Shown here: in pieces, positions 16,679 to 27,136 of the stretch
Numbering within the stretch: position 1 is the stretch's first letter
Layout of the letters: each line of letters starts with the position of its first letter
NCBI RefSeq assembly: GCF_964204645.1
Contig: NC_134030.1
Location: 12,759,947 to 12,823,946 of the forward strand
Origin: Tubulanus polymorphus
Taxonomy: Eukaryota > Nemertea > Palaeonemertea > Tubulaniformes > Tubulanidae
DNA: 64,000 nt
Direction of reading: 5' to 3'
Position numbers and translations under genes: made by a program
Notes under the pieces: generated by a model
Database searches by the model: none
What the model was told of the DNA's origin: nothing
What the model saw: only the letters and a program-made list of their open reading frames with translations

Positions 16679-17014
16679 CACATACCCAACCTAACTTTTG
16701 AAATAATCAAACCTTTAGAAAGGAGGGGTATCCCAGTACAGGTATGCCAGTACATCCAAGTCCAATATCTAAGGGAATCCCCAACCGTGTTTGGTCCCCT
16801 TACTCCAAGCAAAAAAAGTCCATTGAATCCTTATTTCATCATCAATCTGTCTCTCAGGATCCATGGATTTCATACATATAACTGAAATTCTTTACCTATC
16901 CCATTTGCAGAAATTATGGCAACATTTATGGGGGACCTCTTCTTCACTCTAGGTACTATTTTTGGGGTCCAGCCCTACGCATCTTCGAGCTACTAACCTA
17001 ATTGTGGTCTGATG
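16679..17014 (+). repeat. 330-bp direct repeat, right copy
   Basis: This is the counterpart of 15272-15602, differing by substitutions and a short internal duplication (GTACAGGTATGCCAGTACAT). Confidence 0.7.
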
Positions 17015-17383
17015 CCGAACGTAATTCTGGTAGCCACCCGCGACTCAATGACCTTGATTTAAACTTGATCAATTCAAAATTTATTTATTGACGCTTTTGG
17101 TTACATGAACTGATAAGCAATATACAAATGAAATAACCGGAATAACAAGAAATCAATAATATAAAAGAGGTAACAAACAAATGCCCGTAAACCTGTCGGA
17201 CTCGCGAAAGCCGGGCTCGTAAACTCTTTGACTCGGACCCGCTGAGCAATAAATTCATAGAATTGACTTTGAAATTGATTGTGGAGAAGAGAGGGAATAA
17301 TTCGATAGCTCTTCCTCAAAAAGAAGAGAGAAATGTCAGAAGAAAACACAACATGGCTACTAATTGAACGCGGCCAAATTTCC

Positions 17384-17605
17384 GATGTTCACGGCTCGAC
17401 AGTGCCTTTATAACGTGGATTTATCAAAATTCCCATGCAGTATCTGGAGATTGAAGTGAGCGGAAGGATATCATACGGATTGTATCCGCAACAGCGGTAA
17501 GGTAAGGAAGCCTTTGCACTTTTAACAAAAACTGAGTGGAAAAGGGAAAAAAAATAATCAAGCGAATCTCAATAGGGTTTTCTGTGAAGAAACAGACAAC
17601 CCTAA
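17384..17605 (+). repeat. Polinton left terminal inverted repeat
   Basis: Matches the reverse complement of 26900-27136 in order: ACGGCTCGACAGTGC, ATGCAGTATCTGGAGAT, CGGATTGTATCCGCAACAGC, CACTTTTAACAAAAA, GCGAATCTCAATAGGG. It ends in one hairpin unit (AGGGTTTTCTGT..ACAGACAACCCT), the same unit that is tandemly repeated at the right end. Confidence 0.8.
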
Positions 17606-17789
17606 TTACTTGGCAGTTAGAAACTATATATTTGTGACCTCTTTTTCTTTGGAATTTATTAAATTCATAGTTATACTTCTACCTGCTTTATTGATACTCA
17701 TTTAACTCATTTTAGGCGAATTTCTTATTTTGTGTAAACCAAATGAATCATATATTCCTTATATAGAAAGTCACTTCTGTTTATTAGAT

Positions 17790-18400
17790 TTCAAGTTTTA
17801 GTGAAACCAGTCATAGAGAAAGTGGCAATGAACATGGATCAGACGACGATGACGTGAAAATAACTGGAACATCAACTACAGAAGTATCGGTGGCAAAACG
17901 TAAAAAAGGATTATTAGTGCGAATGAGAAACAAGTAATAAAACGTGGCGAATGGTTGACTGATGAATCAATAAATATAGCACAAAATTGCTTGGCCAACC
18001 AGTTCCCCCACATTGAAGGGCTGGAGGATACTCTATCAGGCCCCAACTTACAATTTTCTGTAGCTAATGGAGAATTTATTCAAATTCTCCATTCAGGTGG
18101 TAACCACTGGGTAGTCGTTAGTAATATCGGTTGTCAGTATGGTCATGTTAATTATAATGATACTTTATTTTTTGGACAAATTAAGAACAATGGCCAGAAA
18201 CAAATATCAAATATCATGTTTGCTGATGATATGCATGTTATTTAGGTAAATGTAATGTCTGTTCAAAAGCAATCCAATGGTAATGACTGTGGTGTTTTGG
18301 CCTAGACTATAGCCACTGGTTTAGTTTTTGCGGAAGATGTGACAACTGTGACCTACGATCAGAGTCTTAGTAGGGAACAGTAATAGGGTAATTGTTGTTT
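17790..18400 (+). pseudogene. Ulp1-like (C48) cysteine protease remnant
   Basis: An acidic, Ser-rich leader (17790-17920; SGNEHGSDDDD, then KRKK) runs into a protease-like domain after a one-base slip in an A6 run. The open part is 17932-18245. The conserved catalytic layout is visible: His in SGGNHWVVVSN, Gln in VQKQS and Cys in NGNDCGV, the last two after a stop at 18243. Another stop interrupts the region just past the Cys. Ulp1/C48 folds cleave ubiquitin-like or capsid precursors, and Polintons normally carry an adenain-type member. This one resembles the Ulp1-like proteins spread in metazoan transposons, so it may be either the element's maturation protease or a captured gene. Its base composition is less AT-rich than the neighbouring genes. 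Confidence 0.6.
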
Positions 18401-18526
18401 CATACCAGAGGTCGAAAGGTTGAGCTCATAAAAAATAAAAAATAGATTCTCACACGCTCGAATTTATTTTTTTTTCCCACTCACTCAACCTTTCAACCTC
18501 TGATATGAAACAACACTTACCCTATT
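18382..18526. repeat. 43-bp inverted repeat (foldback)
   Basis: AATAGGGTAATTGTTGTTTC..GGTTGA at 18382-18424 is mirrored at 18484-18526 with few mismatches, around a 59-bp A/T-rich loop. It lies between the protease remnant and the structural block and may be a small MITE or a transcription-end structure. Confidence 0.65.
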
Positions 18527-18602
18527 TCTCTAATAATATTCATGTATATGAACATTATATTATATTTATGAAATCAATTTTAATAAAAGATATGCATAAT
18601 AA

Positions 18603-18944
18603 ATGGAGAGTAAACAAATACACAGTGAATTCTTAAATAGAATTAAAGATACTACAAATCTCAAATCTGTAGATTATAAATTCAAAAGGTTAAATGAATT
18701 AACATAACATAAGAAATATTTAATCACTAACATTGAAACAGTTACTAATAGATATGGAAATAAATTAGTTATTCACTTAGAATATGAATGATTAAAAGGA
18801 AATAAATATAAATTCAGAACATATTTACCAGATAGATTTCATAGATTATCAAGTGAAGATATAGAAGAATTATGTTCTGGTGATTTCTATTTCATATATA
18901 AAGGTAGGAATGAAAAAGGATGTCATGATATAGATTTCGAATAA
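18603..18944 (+). pseudogene. small Polinton protein, OB-fold-like
   Basis: 114 codons from an ATG inside AATAAATGG to TAA, with in-frame TAA and TGA at about codons 35 and 63. The pattern NRYGNKLVIHLEYE followed by FRTYLPDRF and a final short beta-like tail resembles a small protein repeatedly found beside Polinton genes in invertebrates, and the alternating hydrophobic strands suggest an OB-fold (single-stranded DNA binding would be the natural role). This assignment is inference. It is followed 17 bp later by the penton-like gene on the same strand. Confidence 0.4.
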
Positions 18945-18961
18945 AAGAATATGTAAAATAA

Positions 18962-19703
18962 ATGGTTGAATTAAACAAATATAGAATATTTGTTGATTCT
19001 AGAAAACTTACAAATTATAAATCTCATAATTTAGATAGAGAATTTAGAAATTGTGTTGATTTAAAATGAGTAAATATAAGTTTATGTAACTCATTTTACA
19101 ATATATCGAATAAAACTATTGAACATAGAGCCTTTTTGATTTTAAATAATATAAATAAAAATGAATGGTTCTATATATATTTAAGACCAGGGTTATATAA
19201 TTTAGATACATTATCTCAAGAAATTAATAGAAAAGCCTTGCACAAATTAGTTAATGATTCCGGATTTAACATGAGATTTTTAAAAAGTGATAGTTCGGAT
19301 TGAATAAAGATTAGGTTCTCTCAAAGTGAAAAACATAAATTTATGGTAAAAAAACCTATAGCTAAACTGTTAGGAATTCCTCCAGATAGATCTTTTACAA
19401 ATATTGATGCTACACCAAACTTTACACACATTTCTATATTTATTGCAATTTAATTGATCCTACAAAAACATTCGAAGCAACTGAAGATACAATTTGTAAT
19501 TCTAGTATATTAAATATTTTACCATTAAAAATGTTAATCAATTTGGAACGCAAATAAATTATAATTTAGCTGAATGGGATTTCAAAGCTTGTATTCCACA
19601 ATTTGATAATTTTAAATTAGAAATAAGAATTCATAATGGTTACTTAATTGACTTAAATAATTTTCTTGTAATTTATGAATTAGTTATAAGATGTAAAGAG
19701 TAA
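18962..19703 (+). pseudogene. penton/minor capsid protein-like gene
   Basis: It starts at an ATG within AATAAATGG. Reading continues to TAA at 19701 with TGA codons at about 19067 and 19301 and frameshifts near 19445 and 19530. Features: an N-terminal strand region with NSFYNI, a central region rich in beta-type alternation, and a C-terminus LEIRIHNGYLIDLN..FLVIYELVI, the pattern of the closing strands of Polinton penton-like jelly-roll proteins. About 245 residues is the right size for a minor capsid protein. If correct, the product formed vertex capsomers. Identification is from recalled family pattern only. Confidence 0.5.
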
Positions 19704-19721
19704 TTTTTTTGTTATATAGAT

Positions 19722-20075
19722 ATGAAAATAACAGTAGGACCGAGTATATGTTTTGGATTTGATTTTAAACGCGAGAAAGAAATGAAATTGGATATTAATG
19801 ATATAATAACACGTATTAAAAATATTGCATTTTTTAATGAAACAACATTTGATTATGAAACAACAATAAATAAAGAAATTTATAATGTAGATAAGATAAC
19901 TGATTTAATTAGAAATTCTTTAAGATTTTATGAATTAGATGATGATTTTATTATTGATGATATTAAAAGAATAATAACTGAAATATATAAAAATGAAACT
20001 AATAATATTATAAATGTTGAAATTATTATAACTATGATAACTAAATATTTTGAAGGAGATTTTTTTGATAAATAA
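19722..20075 (+). CDS. unknown Polinton protein, 117 aa
   Basis: Open over its whole length, strongly AT-biased, acidic, and rich in Ile/Asp/Asn with predicted helices (repeats of DDI..IIT). No family recognised. Its TAA stop abuts the ATG of the next gene (TAAATGG), which is the compact spacing of a viral gene block. No membrane segment. Confidence 0.5.
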   Translation: MKITVGPSICFGFDFKREKEMKLDINDIITRIKNIAFFNETTFDYETTINKEIYNVDKITDLIRNSLRFYELDDDFIIDDIKRIITEIYKNETNNIINVEIIITMITKYFEGDFFDK

Positions 20076-20297
20076 ATGGATCAAAAGTGGGTAATAAATG
20101 GATTATCTAATGGAGCATTATTATCAATTGGAACTGTTGGATATACAATGATATTTAAAAAAGTATTTAAAATGGGAAGTATTAATGTTGATAGATTTGA
20201 TATCAATGATATTTTAAAATTAACATTAGCAGAAACTTTACCTAATTTAACAATTGATTATTTGGAAAAACAAAAATATATTCCTATTGACGCGTAA
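20076..20297 (+). CDS. small Polinton protein with membrane segment
   Basis: 73 codons, intact. An N-terminal hydrophobic stretch (about residues 9-28, NGALLSIGTVGYTMIFK) is followed by a charged tail containing DINDILKLT and TIDYLEKQK. Small proteins of this layout accompany capsid genes in other Polintons, but the function is unknown. The start lies in AATAAATGG, immediately after the preceding stop. Confidence 0.5.
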   Translation: MDQKWVINGLSNGALLSIGTVGYTMIFKKVFKMGSINVDRFDINDILKLTLAETLPNLTIDYLEKQKYIPIDA

Positions 20298-20313
20298 TTT
20301 TTTTACCAAATAA

Positions 20314-20746
20314 ATGGCATCTGCAATAATTATAACTATTATAGAATCGGCAATTGTTAACGCTTTAGCATTTACTGGTGGCGGTTATTTATTTAAGCAT
20401 ATTGATAAAAATGGATCATTATCAGAACAAAAAAGACATAACTTAGCATTAGAGAAATATAATAAAGCAGCGGAAGAATATAGAGAAAAGAGACAAAATT
20501 ATATGGATTATATTAATAAAGAATTATATAATCAGAAAATTTCAATCAGTCAATGATGCAATGAGTTTATATAACGCAGCAACAAATAAAGAAAAATTAC
20601 ATCCATATAAACCTACAATATCAGATTATTATACGCCAAGTAATGAACAGAAGAAATATGAAATAATTTGAATTTTAGGTGGAACAGTTATTGTTATATT
20701 TGTAGCATATAAATTTACAAATTGATTATATATTATTTTTTGTTAA
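20314..20746 (+). pseudogene. coiled-coil protein with C-terminal membrane anchor
   Basis: The ATG lies in AATAAATGG. Residues 1-80 (to 20556) give a short hydrophobic segment containing NALAFTGGGYLF, then a charged helix beginning KRHNLALEKYNKAAEEY. A frameshift near 20540 restores reading in another frame through DAMSLYNAAT and SDYYTPS to a membrane segment ILGGTVIVIFVAYKF. Two TGA codons flank that segment, and the frame ends at TAA (20744-20746). The arrangement, an N-terminal hydrophobic patch, RHxLALEK helix and C-terminal anchor, recurs in proteins near Polinton/adintovirus genes of invertebrates, role unknown. Confidence 0.55.
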
Positions 20747-20750
20747 ATAA

Positions 20751-21175
20751 ATGGATGATAAAGTTGATAATATTGATATTGTTCCTCACGATATCAATAA
20801 AACTAAATTAAAAAAATATTTAGAAAAAAAAGTTAAAAAGTTTAAAAGTTAAAAAGAAAAAATATTTAAAAAGCAAAATTATATATTATCTTATTATAAG
20901 TGGTTCGGTTACAATTAGTTCGGTGATAACATTTTTAGCAATATTGTCACCATTAACACCTTTAGCTATCTCAATTGGTGTGCTAGGTTTAAGTTCAAGT
21001 GTATTAAACGAAATAAGTTCAATATTAAATATAAAGTGTAATAATGAAAAAATAAAATCTAATATAAAAGAAATAAATAAATCAAAAAGTACATTAGATT
21101 ATAAATTAAGTTTAAATGGTAATATAACAATTGAAGAACAAGATAAATTATTAAAAGAATGAATGCGTAATTAAT
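20751..21175 (+). pseudogene. basic-hydrophobic Polinton protein
   Basis: Starts in AATAAATGG. The N-terminus is charged (KLKKYLEKKVKKFK), then a frameshift near 20850 leads into long hydrophobic helices (20875-21010: SGSVTISSVITFLAILS, LTPLAISIGVLGLSSS) and a Lys/Asn-rich tail. The frame meets TGA at 21160 and TAA at 21173. Viral membrane-active or internal virion proteins of Polintons look like this, but no homologue can be named. Confidence 0.45.
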
Positions 21176-21180
21176 TTTTA

Positions 21181-22700
21181 GGACGTTCGTTAGACGAACG
21201 TCTTTATGTGATCGGTTTGTCGGTTGATGACGCACTTCCGATTTGGTTGACAGACGTTTAAGGTCGTTTTAAAGCCAGTTAGTTAGAGATTTCCTCAAAT
21301 TCCGCATCAGAAATGGTGTCTTCAAGTTGGGATTGAATTTGGTTAAAAATAGTTGGTTAGTTTTTGCTGTGCCCTCTTGAAAAAATGCTCTTCACGCCGT
21401 TTATGTGACATCACACGTCACGTGTTGCTTATGACGTAGAGGGTATAGTGATCGACAGAAGTGCCATTTTTAAAATCGTTGTATCGTGGATGTTAACTTT
21501 AGAGGACCGTACGAAGTCTCTTTAAAGGTGAGTGTCAACATATATGGTGACTTAACTTAATTCCTTGTGAGCGCACAGAGGCCCTGTGAGAATCTAGAGA
21601 CGTTCGCAGCATTGAAAATCCCGCAATGGTCCGCTCGACGCACACACATGCTGTCAGTTTGACCTACGTGACTAAATACAGCCGCCATGAATCAGAAGCA
21701 ATCCACTTCAAATTTTATGAAGTGAATATCATAATTATTATTTATCCGATATACACAAAAAAACCTTTAAGAGAAAGGTATTTGGCGTCGGATTCTGTAC
21801 CGAAAATCCCGGATTGTTACACTGCATAGTTTTTTTAGTAGGGTTCTTTTGACATTCGGCCTTTAAGCCATTTGATTGACACGTGGGGCGGGGCTTGCGA
21901 TCTGCCGATGACGTCAGATGTAAATAATAATATAACCACGTGCATCGCGCACATTTGTAAACAAACCTGGCAACAAATTAGATTTTTTGGCGCCAAAACT
22001 TTTTTGATTTTTTCTTTTGTCCAATGATTTTTCAACTGGAGCTTGTACAATCAAGTATTCACGTTTTATAGACTCTCTCTGAAATAATTCTTGTCCAGGG
22101 GACATGTATTGAAATATCTGTTGTTTTTGTTTTTTTTTATTTTTAGGATATAAACAGCCTAGAAAAAACATCATCTGGCAGACACACATTTGACTACAGA
22201 TCATATCCTGTTATAAAATGTGTTTAATAAATATTTTACTCAAGTTTTCTTGCCATTAATACTTCCGGACTACTTTTATTTTATGGTTATCTAAGTGCAA
22301 GGCAAACATTGGTGGGGTTCCTTTGGCCCTCCGAAGATATAGGACCAAAAGGGGTATTTTATGCCATTTGAATTTATTTTTGCTTAGAAAATCTATTCAA
22401 ATACTTTTTGGCGGGCACATTCAAATTCTGAAGGGTAGGACTAGTCCAACCCCTAAATACACTTGCATTCAGTCTCATGAGAACTAATTTAAAACGTTAA
22501 AACCTTCACCGGCCTCCTACTCAATTTTTTGAATAAATGTAAAACTTATGGCAGAATTTATGGTTGATTCCTCAATTTTTGAATCCCAAAGAATAATTTT
22601 TGAATTACGCAGTAGGATGACACTTGAATAGCCGGTATTCAAATTTTCCAATCAATGTGGGAGGTGTCTGGGTCTACATGCGTTTCACAAACGAACGTCC
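21181..22700. mobile_element. 1.5 kb foreign insertion with short TIRs
   Basis: The AT-rich gene block stops abruptly at 21180 and resumes at about 22700. The insert has ordinary host-like composition and ends in inverted copies: GGACGTTCGTT at 21181 and AACGAACGTCC ending at 22700. The left end is itself a palindrome (GACGTTCGT-TAG-ACGAACGTC). No clear TSD and no ORF of note. It separates the two halves of the structural block. Confidence 0.5.
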
Positions 22701-22734
22701 TCTTTTAAAGTTTCTTTCTAGTTTTATTATGTAA

Positions 22735-23611
22735 ATGGGTTTTCCAAAAGCTTTCCAATATAATAAATCAATTAAAAATAATATTCCTGCAATAGATTTT
22801 AATAAAAATATTTCATATAAAAATTTAGTTTTAAATTCATTTATTAATTTAGAAATTTATGGAGTTTTTTATTTCTAGAATGGAAAATATATTTAATACA
22901 TATGAAGTTACTTTTACTCGAGATGAATATAATATATGTAAAATAAAATCTAATATGAAATATTAGGAGAATCAATTAAATCTTGCTGTTTATTGTGCAA
23001 CAACCGGATGTGGTATAAGTTGGAATAATCATTTAAATAATTTAGATAAAAATTTGAATTATTCTGATTTAAAATTAATTCATACAATATTTAGATTTCA
23101 CACGTATTTTCAATTTAGAATTATATCAAATAAATTAGAATGTCCTTTACCTGGATCAAAATATTTTAAAGAATTGGATAAGTTTTACAAAATATGTAAT
23201 GAATTTAATATAAATATAAATAATTCCGATTTTTGAGCGCATGGTAAATAACAAGGTGTTGGTGAAGAATTTGAAATAAAAAGAATTGATTATATGCATA
23301 GAGTTGGAGCTTATCATAATTATGAAATTGATAATAATAATGGTTGGATTAAATTTATTTTAGAAAATAATTAATGTTTTTCCAAACCTGGTATACAAAG
23401 AATAAATCGATCTATCAGATTATATTTGATTTGTATATTGGGATTACAGGTTGAAACAAGATCACCAATAGTTGGAAATGATAATACTTCATTTGATGCA
23501 CAGAAACAATTCAAAGTAGTATTTGACGATTCTATTTATAATGATAGAAATAGATCGATTCCAGAAAATATAGTAAGATATCAAAATTATTTAGATAAAT
23601 CTCATAATTAA
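22735..23611 (+). pseudogene. candidate major capsid/structural gene
   Basis: ATG at 22735, 35 bp past the insertion. Stops: TAG near 22876 and 22963, TGA near 23234, TAA near 23250 and 23372, with small shifts between segments. Recognisable patches are MGFPKAFQYNKS, FNTYEVTFTRDEYN, NLAVYCATTGCGISW, FRFHTYFQFR, then GLQVETRSPIVGN. The same ordered patches occur in a protein coded next to Polinton integrase and ATPase genes in cnidarians and other invertebrates. The size before decay (over 290 residues, C-terminus cut by foreign DNA at 23612) suits a capsid protein, but double jelly-roll identity is not shown. Confidence 0.45.
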
Positions 23612-23987
23612 TAAACTCTTACCATTGTATAGTGTTGCTACCGTTGTATATGACATGATAATCGGATATCAGTGAGTCGCGCTGTAGGTCAGTGAATACG
23701 GTGAACAAATAGTGTTTATTTTATTGATTATACATAGGCTACGCGTAAAAGCGCGCACACGTGCCTGTGTTGTCATAGTTAACATCATAAATAGCACCAC
23801 CCGTGGGTTGAATATGAACTATACGTACGAAGTGAAGGATAAATAGATGACTATTCCGCTAACTATTACGGCTAATTCGTGCTCCTTTTTTGAATAAGTA
23901 ACATCTCAGGTCGTTATATGTATACTAACGTTTCTTCAGGTAAAGAAATCGCGGAAAGTACAATTTGACGGCAGTTGCCCTTTAAGG
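23612..23987. other. foreign 0.38 kb segment inside the Polinton
   Basis: GC content and codon appearance change sharply to host-like sequence (GCGCGCACACGTGCC) and back to AT-rich coding at about 23988. No TIR or TSD found. It removes the 3' end of the capsid-like gene. Confidence 0.4.
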
Positions 23988-24302
23988 TTAGAAAAAGATA
24001 TTGATGATTTAAAATATAATTTAGAATTACAGAAAGAAGAAAAAAAATTATCAAAATCATATAATTATTGTATTAATAGATTAAAAGTTATTTTTAAAGA
24101 TTTGTTGACAAAACCAAATTCGAAATATCATTAAAAGATAGAATAAAATTATTATTTAAATTAGAAGGTATAACAATTCTTTCAATTCGAACAGCTGTAA
24201 CTATGGTATTTACAACAATTGGTTTAGCTATATCAAATTCATTAAAATCGACACCAAGCCCTAAACCACCTGATAAACCACCAAATGATAGTTATGAATC
24301 CG
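23988..24302 (+). pseudogene. coiled-coil/hydrophobic protein with Pro-rich tail
   Basis: The frame opens inside coding sequence after the foreign segment: helix LKYNLELQKEEKKLSKS, a frameshift near 24115, then a hydrophobic helix (TAVTMVFTTIGLAIS) and the tail TPSPKPPDKPP, ending at TAA. The start is missing. The layout resembles the basic-hydrophobic protein at 20751 and could be a paralogue or another internal virion protein. Confidence 0.4.
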
Positions 24303-24660
24303 AAATTTAATAAAATGAATATATTAGATTATCGGTGGTATAGAAAAATATTTATAGATTATTTCTCGAGTAATGATATAGATGATATATTGAAAATGTT
24401 AGATAACTTTAAACCAAATATAACTCATGCAATGAATTTATTTGAACTTAAATATGATGATTTTAGAGAATTTTTGAATAAACATCCATCTTAAAATGAA
24501 ATCGAAAGTTATATTCCAAAAATATTTTCAAGAGCAACATTCAATAAATATAAACTCAGGAATTATGGAATTATAACAATGGAAACGCAAAGGAATGTAT
24601 AGTTAGAATATTATAATCTTATAGAAAAATATGAAAATGAAAAGGATTAATTTCTATACA
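24285..24660 (+). pseudogene. unknown Polinton ORF, decayed
   Basis: 69 codons are open (24285-24494). In-frame continuation past TAA gives NEIESYIPKIFSRAT and, after further disruption, [15 protein letters not shown] to about 24650. Helical and charged, no family recognised. It overlaps the end of the preceding gene and is the last + strand gene before the convergent - strand block. Confidence 0.35.
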
Positions 24661-24688
24661 GAAATTTCGTATACATATTGATGTACAA

Positions 24689-24790
<102 letters not shown>

Positions 24791-24802
24791 ACTTTTAACA
24801 TA

Positions 24803-24960
24803 CCAATTGGAAGAATGGTACGAGTATGAATATAATTGATAAAATAACTTAAAATCAAACTCGTACTGTTTTTAAAATGAAAAATATATATAAATTATAT
24901 ACGTTACACTCGTACCATTCTTCCAATTCTTCCAATTCATACACTCGTATACTTATACAC
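24803..24960. repeat. inverted repeat between convergent genes
   Basis: CCAATTGGAAGAATGGTACG at about 24803 is mirrored by CGTACCATTCTTCCAATT near 24912, with partial duplication of the right arm. It sits where + and - strand gene blocks of the element converge, next to the (TA)n tract. A transcription-end hairpin or an origin-like structure is possible. Confidence 0.45.
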
Positions 24961-25049
24961 AATTCTAAATTCTATCATATTTCAAATTATGATTTTATTT
25001 TATAAATTTATATTCATATGGAAATTGTAGTCTCAGTAATAATTTGGAC

Positions 25050-25581
25050 CTTTATTACTTTTTAATTTATTCGTATATTCATCATGTAATTCAGTAGGTA
25101 TAATTTCATTTTCTTCCAATGATTGTTACAAAGATTTTCTATCTTTATTGTAGAATCTTTCACAATCGAATTATATTTTTGAATTAACACCCATGTTGCT
25201 ATCCCAAAATGTCTCTCAAAGAAAGCTAAATAGCATAGTTCACTTTCTCTAAATTTTGAATCATGTAAATCTGCACAATATATCTACAATAAATAATGTA
25301 TTCGTTCCTTTATAAATATCTAATGCAATTCTAATACAATTATCTAAGTTATTCTTTACAGAAGTAGGATTTAATATAATAAATCTTTTATCTTTAAAAA
25401 CTATATCTCTATTATACGTTTCATTCATTTCATAAGTATGGCAGAAAAATATAATATTATCAAAATGATTTTTATAAATAGTTTCTAACAAATCTAATAT
25501 AAAATGTGTTTTACCACAGTTGGTTACTCCAGTAACTAACATATTATGTGGTTCAAATATAAATGAATCTTTACTATTCAT
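25050..25581 (-). pseudogene. FtsK/HerA-type packaging ATPase
   Basis: Open from ATG at 25581 (in AATAAATG) to 25261. Residues 14-24 give a Walker A loop, VTGVTNCGKTHF, and about residue 95 a Walker B strand, NTLFIVD. A slip near 25270 moves reading to another frame that continues with ADLHDSKFRESEL, FFERHFGIATWVL and QKYNSIVKD, the features of Polinton A32-like ATPases, and a second slip near 25130 carries it to about 25050. These ATPases drive genome packaging into capsids. The start overlaps the integrase 3' end by 8 bp, so the two were probably expressed together. Confidence 0.75.
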
Positions 25582-26632
25582 TTATTTTTTTGATTTTATT
25601 TAATAAGATCCATTCATTAAATTTATCATCATACCCTTTATATTTCACCAAAGAATATTTCTTGCCATGTAATGTTTTTGCTTTTTCTATTTTGTATTCT
25701 ATATCATCTGGATTTGGTACAAGTGATAATTCTTGTTCGTAAAAATATTTCTTCGTCCTTTAAATCTTCTAAACAAATGGTTTAGTTAATATAATTCTTT
25801 TAATTTTAAATATTTCTTCAGTAAAATTAGGAGTATAACCTTTGTAAAATGTTTTTCTATGTTTAGAAATTCTAACATGTTGTCCTATTTTAAATTTAGG
25901 TTCTCCGAAATCATGTGTAACAAACACACCATATAAATTATTCCAAACAACTTCTGAATTATTTCCTTTTCTAGCGTGTATAGGTTTCATATCTATAGAA
26001 CTATGTTTAGAATTATTATAACCTTTCACTAAATCATCTAATACATCGATATATTTATATGTTTCATTAGCAGTAAAATATTTCCACATTCTAGTTTTCA
26101 ATGTTTTATTAAATCTTTCTATAATAGATGCTTTTTTATCTGAGTGCGTTGAAAAATATTCCACATCGTTATCGGATAATAATTTTTTTAAATGTTTATT
26201 GTAAAATTCTTTACCTTCACCAAGTTGTATCTTATCCGGGATAGCTTTTTTAAATATATTTTTAAAAGCATTAGTAACTTCTATACGAGTTTTATTTCTG
26301 ATTGGAATTGACCATGCGTATCTACTGAATATATCTATAACATTTAATATCCAGAAATATCCTTTATTGTATTCTTCTAAGTTTTTCATATCAATTAAAT
26401 CTGCTTGCCATTGTTGATCAATATATGAAACCATAACTTTTCTTGTTAAATGATTTTTATCCATCTTCGTATGTATTTCATATGTTGGATTTTGTAACCA
26501 TAATTTTAATTCACTATATTTCATATTTTCATTATCATATTGTATTTTATCCCATAATTCTGAAACACTAGAATATGATACTTCACTCTCTGGGTCATAA
26601 TATAAATCTTTTAAATATTGATCTTTTTTCAT
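25574..26632 (-). pseudogene. Polinton-type DDE integrase with chromodomain
   Basis: 288 codons open (26632-25769), then two compensating single-base slips (about 25765 to 25730) restore the same frame to TAG at 25574. The rve core: first Asp in WQADLID (about residue 78), Glu in SIIERFNKTLK (about residue 168). The second catalytic Asp, expected before GKEF, is replaced: the sequence reads IQLGEGKEF. The tail is a chromodomain (YKIEKAKTLHGKKYSLVKYK, then GYDDKFNEWI), usual in Polinton and chromovirus integrases for reading histone marks. No intact N-terminal zinc finger was noticed. Family identity is strong. Loss of the second Asp means the product could not integrate DNA. Confidence 0.88.
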
Positions 26633-26638
26633 CTTATT

Positions 26639-26983
26639 TTAATCCTTTAATGATAATTTGGATTTATTTTCAATGATTTTATCATTAGGGTTTTCTGTTA
26701 TTTCACAGAAAACCCTATTGATATCCGCGTGATTATTAGGGTTTTCTGTTATTTCACAGAAAACCCTATTGATATCCGCGTGATTATTAGGGTTTTCTGT
26801 TACATCACAGAAAACCCTATTGAGATTCGCGTGTTTCTTATTATTAGGGTTTTCTGTTACATCACAGAAAACCCTATTGAGATTCGCGTGTTTCTTATTA
26901 TTAGGGTTTTCTGTTACATCACAGAAAACCCTATTGAGATTCGCGTGTTTCTTATTATTATTATTATTATAATTTTTTTCCAC
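26639..26983 (-). CDS. ORF made of hairpin repeats
   Basis: 114 codons end 6 bp upstream of the integrase ATG, on the same strand. The product is five copies of a 17-19 residue unit, NLNRVFCDVTENPNN or NHADINRVFCEITENPNN, after a poly-Asn start. The DNA units are 51 or 57 bp, all multiples of three, so the frame stays open. The opposite strand is open for the same reason (26729-27007). It may be only a consequence of the TIR hairpin array, not a real protein. Confidence 0.25.
   Translation of the reverse strand: MEKNYNNNNNKKHANLNRVFCDVTENPNNKKHANLNRVFCDVTENPNNKKHANLNRVFCDVTENPNNHADINRVFCEITENPNNHADINRVFCEITENPNDKIIENKSKLSLKD
26687..26950. repeat. tandem hairpin array in right TIR
   Basis: Five units begin at 26687, 26738, 26789, 26846 and 26903 (periods 51, 51, 57, 57). 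Each contains AGGGTTTTCTGT, a 6-base loop and ACAGAAAACCCT, a perfect 12-bp stem, followed by ATTGAGATTCGCGTG or ATTGATATCCGCGTG. The left TIR holds one inverted copy of the same unit (17558-17605). Confidence 0.9.
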
Positions 26984-27136
26984 ACATTTTTTGTCAAAAG
27001 TACATAGGCTTTTTTACATTACCGCTGTTGCCGATACAATCCGTCTGATATCATTCAGCTCAGTTCGATCTACAAATACTCCATGCGAATTTTGAAGAAT
27101 CAACGTTACAAAAGCACTGTCGGGCCGTAAACTTCG
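26900..27136 (-). repeat. Polinton right terminal inverted repeat
   Basis: The reverse complement aligns with 17384-17605 over its whole length, with roughly one difference in five by eye plus a (TAA)n expansion at 26951-26971. A second partial copy of the outer motif lies at about 27360-27400. Confidence 0.8.

What the first reader, a model, noticed from the sequence alone, without database searches (positions are those of the whole stretch)
17384..27136. Compact Polinton-like element with capsid, packaging and integrase genes but no visible DNA polymerase B
The element carries what a virion needs (penton-like and other structural genes, protease, packaging ATPase) and what integration needs (integrase with chromodomain), yet the space between its inverted ends, minus two foreign insertions, is only about 7.8 kb and leaves no room for a family B polymerase of 1,000 or more residues. 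Either PolB was deleted before or after insertion, or this lineage spread without its own polymerase and relied on a helper or host replication. Structural genes sit on + and ATPase/integrase on -, converging on a (TA)n tract.
Basis: partly seen in the sequence, partly recalled or inferred. Interest (0 to 1): 0.78.

Follow-up and report, generated by a model that had tools for sequence, protein, structure and literature searches.

The report
Decayed copy of polymerase-less Polinton lineage
This is a worn-out piece of a virus-like mobile element that lost its own DNA-copying enzyme, and sister copies with the same loss sit at many other places in the same animal-like genome, beside relatives that still carry the enzyme and may have copied them.

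Summary
A Polinton (Maverick) remnant without PolB is there, but not as described. The true left end is 18379: AG, a 151-bp terminal palindrome, then gene a. Element DNA stops at 26686; the right end is lost. All six genes compared with intact relatives are broken or cut, and about 3.3-4.8 kb between gene433 and integrase is missing. The unnamed 268-Mb genome holds many relatives. Of 20 drawn from 149 listed copies, 13 have PolB directly before gene a and 3 have another PolB-type order. The loss is not private: in 31 of 39 other scored places (28 elements) the family sequence starts at the same palindrome, joined to gene a. Three elements read at both ends (2.1, 4.1, 8.9 kb) have perfect 6-bp target duplications, AG...CT ends and no PolB in the parts read. 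In a gene-a tree the window and 8 such copies form a clade (100/98), partly by choice of rows; the 8.9-kb element falls outside it. Best reading: a deletion derivative that amplified, presumably copied in trans by PolB-bearing relatives. The window copy itself is dead.

The parts
   Evidence: 7 loci (L010-L016) match 17008 or 17022 to 17606 at 91-93% with sharp ends; 39 other scored copies of the inner 252 bp at 92-94%. Inner neighbours differ, except that L014 and L015 are alike; in L013 and L016 family DNA lies a little further in
   Evidence: 775-bp block with one other copy (94%, L038) among 40 scored places; GC 35% against 21-24% of the coding parts of the element. C48 likeness is recalled; no Pfam or convincing PDB match. 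In L038 the block lies about 0.27 kb from another family end with PolB, so host or mobile origin is open
18379..18529 (+). true left terminus: 151-bp terminal palindrome, begins AG, ends CT
   Evidence: 31 of 39 other scored places start at 18371-18381, none further left; upstream of the 7 loci read mutually unrelated; palindrome score 136 against at most 39 in 500 shuffles
18603..18944 (+). gene a (relatives 113-117 aa), 2 stops in the aligned stretch
   Evidence: tblastn 79% over 117 of 117 residues
   Evidence: stop-free pieces without convincing Pfam match; relatives begin at the same point
19722..20075 (+). gene c, open 117 aa
   Evidence: relatives
20076..20297 (+). gene d, open 73 aa
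   Evidence: relative of 81 aa in L032
20314..20722 (+). gene e, small hydrophobic protein, frameshifted and with one stop
   Evidence: tblastn with an intact 140-aa relative, two frames
20875..21159 (+). gene g, cut or frameshifted
   Evidence: tblastn with an intact 144-aa relative finds residues 46-140 only
21180..22721 (.). foreign insertion (ends AGGACGTTCGTT/AACGAACGTCCT, DNA-transposon-like)
   Evidence: absent from 19 of 19 relatives; in 18 the flanks join within a few bases, in L027 after a small deletion; ends read
22735..23605 (+). 5' part of a 433-aa gene (up to residue 299), 4 stops and a frameshift; rest missing
   Evidence: tblastn; homology of the 19 relatives stops at 23605/23606; 108 database relatives
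23607..23984 (.). second foreign stretch at an internal deletion; limits approximate
   Evidence: GC 39%; integrase lies 5.8-7.2 kb from gene433 in 31 of 37 pairs within 15 kb, 2.4 kb here without this stretch
23985..24289 (+). AT-rich stretch of unclear origin
   Evidence: none of 39 other scored places matches it together with 24290 onwards
24290..24658 (+). element segment with a small open frame
   Evidence: 39 other scored places match from query position 305-310 onwards
24692..24787 (.). (AT)48 tract between converging genes
25048..25575 (-). A32-like packaging ATPase, broken (6 stops in the aligned frame, end part out of frame)
25577..26638 (-). RVE integrase with chromodomain, broken (2 stops in the aligned frame)
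   Evidence: arms 79% alike over 256 bases, likeness fades outside; 7 of 7 integrase relatives leave the window at 26679-26686 and share other sequence beyond

Best explanation
The stretch 18379-26686 is a decayed, right-truncated copy of a PolB-less Polinton sub-lineage. In PolB-bearing relatives of the same genome PolB stands directly before gene a. In the sub-lineage a deletion joined the palindromic AG end to gene a, removing PolB. The shortened element kept what is needed in cis, its ends, and was copied into many new places, presumably by PolB and integrase supplied in trans by PolB-bearing relatives (inferred, not shown). The window copy then lost about 3.3-4.8 kb between gene433 and the ATPase, took up two foreign stretches, lost its right end and decayed.
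For: Shared left terminus in 31 of 39 other scored places, 28 elements, with mutually unrelated flanks in the 7 read; palindrome-gene a-gene b in one stretch in 6 others, 4 more starting inside or just after the palindrome; perfect 6-bp duplications in the three elements read at both ends, AG...CT ends, two of them in the window's clade; PolB next to gene a in 13 of 20 drawn copies and the ORF432-gene b order in 3 more (PolB precedes it in the three loci); 29 of 40 scored places begin at 18571-18572, where PolB ends; gene-a tree: window plus 8 palindrome-labelled copies one clade, 100/98; PolB open frames up to 1,690 aa in the genome.
Against: Most palindrome rows of the tree were picked by likeness to the window, which favours a clade, and L073 has only part of the palindrome, set off from gene a. 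Two palindrome-labelled rows (L064 of the 8.9-kb element, L071) fall among PolB-bearing ones, so PolB was lost more than once or ends were exchanged. Right ends of the long copies of the clade were not read; L076 has PolB fragments near a right end. None of the 20 drawn gene433 copies was of the palindrome type, so long PolB-less copies are a minority at best. Half of the 4.1-kb and a fifth of the 8.9-kb element were not read, though the gaps (2.0; 0.8 and 1.1 kb) are too short for a PolB of the relatives' length. Copying in trans is not shown.
Confidence: 0.7

Rival explanations
1. A private deletion: this single copy lost PolB after insertion, as many old Polintons lose genes.
For: The copy is heavily decayed and has another internal deletion of several kb; 96% of vertebrate copies were called defective (PMC8097293, passages); gene loss among Polintons is described (PMC4028283, passages).
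Against: The same end-gene a join is found in 31 of 39 other scored places, flanks unrelated in the 7 read, with target duplications in the three elements read at both ends.
Confidence: 0.08
2. Recurrent truncation: the palindrome makes replication or integration stop there, so many copies independently end before gene a without forming a lineage.
For: A strong terminal palindrome exists; two palindrome-labelled rows lie outside the clade; other family ends also bear such inverted arms.
Against: Window plus 8 copies form one clade, 100/98, though partly by choice of rows; elements with the same AG...CT end at both sides and target duplications exist.
Confidence: 0.13
3. PolB moved rather than vanished: palindrome-gene a elements carry PolB near the other end, and this copy lost it with its right end.
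For: L076, at the right end of a relative, has PolB fragments on the minus strand beyond the integrase; the window copy has no right end.
Against: The 2.1-kb element was read whole and the 4.1-kb and 8.9-kb ones in part, without PolB hits, and their unread gaps are too short for a whole PolB.
Confidence: 0.09

Closest known systems
Polintons/Mavericks (Polintoviricetes)
   Same: RVE integrase with chromodomain, A32/FtsK-type ATPase, AG...CT ends and 6-bp target duplications in sister elements, PolB-bearing relatives in the same genome
   Different: no PolB, MCP or protease found in this copy; palindromic ends; sister elements of 2-9 kb instead of 15-20 kb
Defective Mavericks amplified in axolotl, tuatara and pike (PMC8097293, passages read)
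   Same: many copies without a working PolB
   Different: there the polymerase gene is described as fragmented by stops and frameshifts; here PolB is absent at a shared join, with PolB-bearing relatives of long open frame beside it
Polinton-like viruses and Tlr1 (PMC11071308 and PMC4028283, passages read)
   Same: mostly lack Polinton PolB; Tlr1 keeps an RVE integrase and was once suggested to be a non-autonomous Polinton derivative
   Different: those encode other replication proteins; none was seen among the families shown
Non-autonomous DNA transposons and MITEs; defective interfering or satellite genomes (recalled)
   Same: deletion derivatives that keep their ends and spread with enzymes from intact relatives
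   Different: derived from a self-synthesizing, virus-like element

Membership tests
Polinton/Maverick | protein-primed PolB | tested here: not met
   none found in the copy; present in relatives
Polinton/Maverick | RVE integrase (chromodomain) | tested here: met
   broken
Polinton/Maverick | FtsK/A32-type ATPase | tested here: met
   broken
Polinton/Maverick | double jelly-roll MCP and penton | tested here: inconclusive
   no Pfam match; the interval gene433-ATPase, where MCP may lie, is largely missing; the 433-aa protein is modelled as mostly helical; gene b not identified
Polinton/Maverick | cysteine protease in the element | tested here: not met
   only candidate lies left of the true end; relatives' protease gene was not sought
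Polinton/Maverick | AG...CT ends, inverted ends and 6-bp target duplication | tested here: inconclusive
   left AG end met, right end not found; met in the three sister elements read at both ends
Polinton-like virus or Tlr1 | alternative replication protein (helicase, primase, PolA) | tested here: not met
   none among the best 25 of 43 families for 109 pieces; weak P-loop matches belong to the A32-like ATPase
Adintovirus | PolB with OTU-like domain plus recognisable hexon | tested here: not met
   no PolB in the copy; hexon not found
Non-autonomous derivative family | same internal deletion in independent insertions with target duplications | tested here: met
   for the window copy itself no duplication can be read, and the 8.9-kb element lies outside its clade

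The most novel reading that the evidence does not exclude
A helper-dependent satellite Polinton: a lineage that gave up PolB, kept structural, packaging and integrase genes as well as palindromic replication ends, and propagated as a packaged virus on the polymerase of co-resident Polintons, with still shorter derivatives (2-9 kb) spreading the same way.
Probability: 0.2. Interest if true: 0.78.

Novelty: new variant of a known kind. Interest (0 to 1): 0.56.

Why it matters
Hundreds of defective Mavericks in some vertebrate genomes were called perplexing, with the process behind them unclear (PMC8097293, passages). Here one genome holds PolB-bearing relatives with long open frames beside PolB-less copies that share one join and, where testable, have target duplications. 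That makes spread in trans a directly testable explanation, and suggests that Polintons, like other viruses and transposons, have parasites of their own.

Tried and rejected
The palindrome 18379-18529 as a foreign MITE (my first idea): it runs on into element DNA in 31 of 39 other scored places. A genetic code with TGA read as tryptophan, suggested by several in-frame TGA codons: the integrase frame has tryptophan without TGA, and the relatives of gene g shown end without tryptophan at one such place, while those of gene e have it at another, so ordinary decay. A PolB relic at 21.2-25 kb: none found. A structure of gene433 from one sequence: useless (pLDDT 29). Six scans of viral contigs (integrase, integrase alignment, gene433 piece, ATPase, P0121, gene b piece) found no relative. 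Papers on PolB-less or non-autonomous Polintons in animals: the listings showed none that I recognised as describing this; passages of five papers were read, none whole, so absence from print is not claimed. One paper was not held.

Unanswered: the genome search; a PolB protein search with a query of the gene-a type therefore never ran. A first distance count ignored the strand of the gene; one search corrects it (5.8-7.2 kb instead of 5.8-7.8 kb). My notes say 38 palindrome ends; recounted, 31 start at the end and 7 inside the palindrome.
Full report
What the window holds. The window lies in an unnamed 268-Mb genome (G000:C6:12759947-12823946). Reverse-transcriptase-like frames around the element (recognised by eye) and named integrase relatives in Lineus longissimus and Branchiostoma suggest an animal host; the species was not determined. 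GC content separates the coding parts of the element (21-24%) from the foreign blocks (35-39%) and the flanks (36-38%). Integrase and ATPase are real. No PolB match was found in 109 of 115 stop-free pieces of the region (the best 25 of 43 families are shown), nor by tblastn with the C-terminal parts of relatives' PolB.

The inverted arms are not the ends. The arms match each other at about 79-81%, but the left one matches 39 other scored places at 92-94%, in the 7 loci read over 17008-17606 with sharp limits on both sides. Their inner neighbours differ, except that L014 and L015 are alike. Against a clean separation, family DNA lies a little further in at L013 and L016, as in the window. In 7 of 7 integrase relatives read, homology to the window ends at 26679-26686 and other, shared sequence follows for up to 1.4 kb. 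The arms are therefore read as copies of a dispersed repeat, and the right one as a truncation.

The true left end. A query across 18300-18800 found 39 other scored places (40 of 1,729 first-look candidates were scored): 31 start at 18371-18381, 7 start inside the palindrome, 1 after it, none reaches further left. Three pairs among the 31 are the two ends of one element, so these are 28 elements. Upstream sequences of the 7 loci read share nothing with each other. The end is AG followed by a 151-bp palindrome (score 136 against at most 39 in 500 shuffles). In the three elements for which both ends were read, the ends are AG...CT and the flanks carry perfect 6-bp duplications: GAGAGG, TATAAA and AATCAC. 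Vertebrate Mavericks also have AG-type end motifs and 6-bp duplications (PMC8097293, passages). The protease-like fragment is left of this end, in a 775-bp block with one other copy (94%) among 40 scored places; that copy, too, lies about 0.27 kb from a family end with PolB (L038), so whether the block is host or mobile DNA is open.

Where PolB belongs. The genome holds 111 listed PF03175 matches (91 of 1,340 first-look candidates scored), with open frames up to 1,690 aa. In three loci chosen for having PolB, PolB is followed by a 432-aa zinc-finger-like frame on the other strand (split in one) and then gene b; this PolB has an intein-like stretch with a LAGLIDADG domain in the two loci tested. 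In 5 of 7 loci spanning gene a and gene b, PolB stands directly before gene a, without that stretch. This second PolB is identified by about 70-79% identity to the first, whose frame overlaps a PF03175 match; its C-terminal piece alone has no Pfam match. Of 20 copies drawn at random from the 149 listed relatives of gene433, 13 have PolB-gene a-gene b, 3 the zinc-finger type (PolB itself not in the 1.3 kb read), 1 gene a without PolB in the stretch read, 3 none of these parts; none has the palindrome.

A shared loss. A 1-kb query from 18379 scored 40 places: the window; 6 others from the first base of the palindrome into gene b (five to the end of the query, one to 774 of 1,001); 4 starting inside or just after the palindrome; and 29 starting at 18571-18572, where PolB ends in the PolB-bearing loci read. 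In a tree of gene a (30 rows, 393 columns) the window and 8 palindrome-labelled copies form a clade with support 100/98; two more such rows (L064, L071) lie among the 18 PolB-bearing rows. Most palindrome rows were fetched because they resemble the window, so the clade is partly built in, and one of the 8 (L073) has only part of the palindrome. Within the clade mean identity is 92.4% (36 pairs), within PolB-bearing rows 93.2% (153 pairs, up to 99.2%), between them 88.7%. The three elements with duplications measure 2.1, 4.1 and 8.9 kb. The first was read whole, the second for 2.05 kb, the third for 6.9 kb, without PolB hits; the unread gaps are too short for a whole PolB. The first two are in the window's clade. 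The 8.9-kb one carries parts of genes e and g, gene433, integrase and ATPase, but its gene a is on the PolB-bearing side of the tree: PolB was lost at least twice, or ends were exchanged.

State of the window copy. Gene433 is kept up to residue 299 with 4 stops, gene a has 2 stops, gene e and gene g are shifted or cut, ATPase and integrase are interrupted; small genes c and d are open. In 31 of 37 listed gene433-integrase pairs within 15 kb, the integrase lies 5.8-7.2 kb away on the opposite strand, 2.4 kb here, so roughly 3.3-4.8 kb is missing. The first insertion is absent from 19 of 19 relatives. The missing stretch may have held the major capsid gene; this was not seen. The 433-aa protein has 108 database relatives, a confident, mostly helical model (pLDDT 83) and no match in the viral or PDB libraries (best E 0.31 and 1.3), so it does not look like a jelly-roll capsid protein.

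How it most likely works. Shown: PolB-less elements with family ends at many places, target duplications in the three testable ones, PolB-bearing relatives with long open frames in the same genome. Inferred: PolB and integrase of relatives copied and inserted them; the palindromic ends serve replication. Not shown: particles, activity, or that long PolB-less copies ever carried a full capsid set.

Relation to print. Polintons are described as encoding pPolB, RVE integrase, ATPase and protease plus capsid genes, with gene loss in some (PMC4028283 and PMC11071308, passages). Polinton-like viruses mostly lack pPolB but encode other replication proteins (PMC11071308). [quoted passage not shown] Vertebrate copy numbers average 22, median 8, with up to 287 defective copies (PMC8097293, passages). 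The review of giant transposons (PMC6431247, passages) was seen for its Polinton and non-autonomous passages. The listings of nine searches (open-licence papers only) showed no paper that I recognised as describing a PolB-less amplified Polinton family.

Noticed in passing
G000 contigs C1-C12: Listed copies of the family crowd into the middle of the big contigs: 126 of 144 gene433 and 106 of 128 integrase matches lie in spans covering 29% of their length (spans drawn from the same data). The 600-bp repeat does the same (35 of 39), and the few matches of a LINE control (20 candidates) also looked central by eye, so targeting by the chromodomain is not shown.
   Followed up: partly
L061, L063: PolB of one subfamily carries an intein-like stretch with a LAGLIDADG domain (the splicing-domain score is under its curated cut-off), missing from the PolB of the other subfamily.
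   Followed up: partly
L029:1258-2556 and window 22735-23605: A conserved 433-aa protein, modelled as mostly helical with a long C-terminal helix, in 108 database proteins; no Pfam family and no fold match.
   Followed up: yes
G000: Large Polinton expansion: 134 other integrase matches with E 1.8e-166 or better were listed (135 scored of 1,887 first-look candidates), most without stops; 73 of 149 gene433 frames are 420 aa or longer. Counts are lower bounds.
   Followed up: partly
26681-26960: Five tandem 51/57-bp units, each with an inverted repeat (TAGGGTTTTCTGT...ACAGAAAACCCTA), at the inner end of the right repeat copy; one such unit at the inner end of the left copy. Could be a Helitron-like 3' end (recalled).
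   Followed up: partly
L076, near C7:10869767: A relative's right end has a ~316-bp palindrome and PolB fragments beyond the integrase, as if the PolB end had been copied onto the other end.
   Followed up: partly
P0077, P0106: Two related integrases carry PF08398, a phospholipase A2-like domain known from parvovirus capsids (recalled).
   Followed up: no
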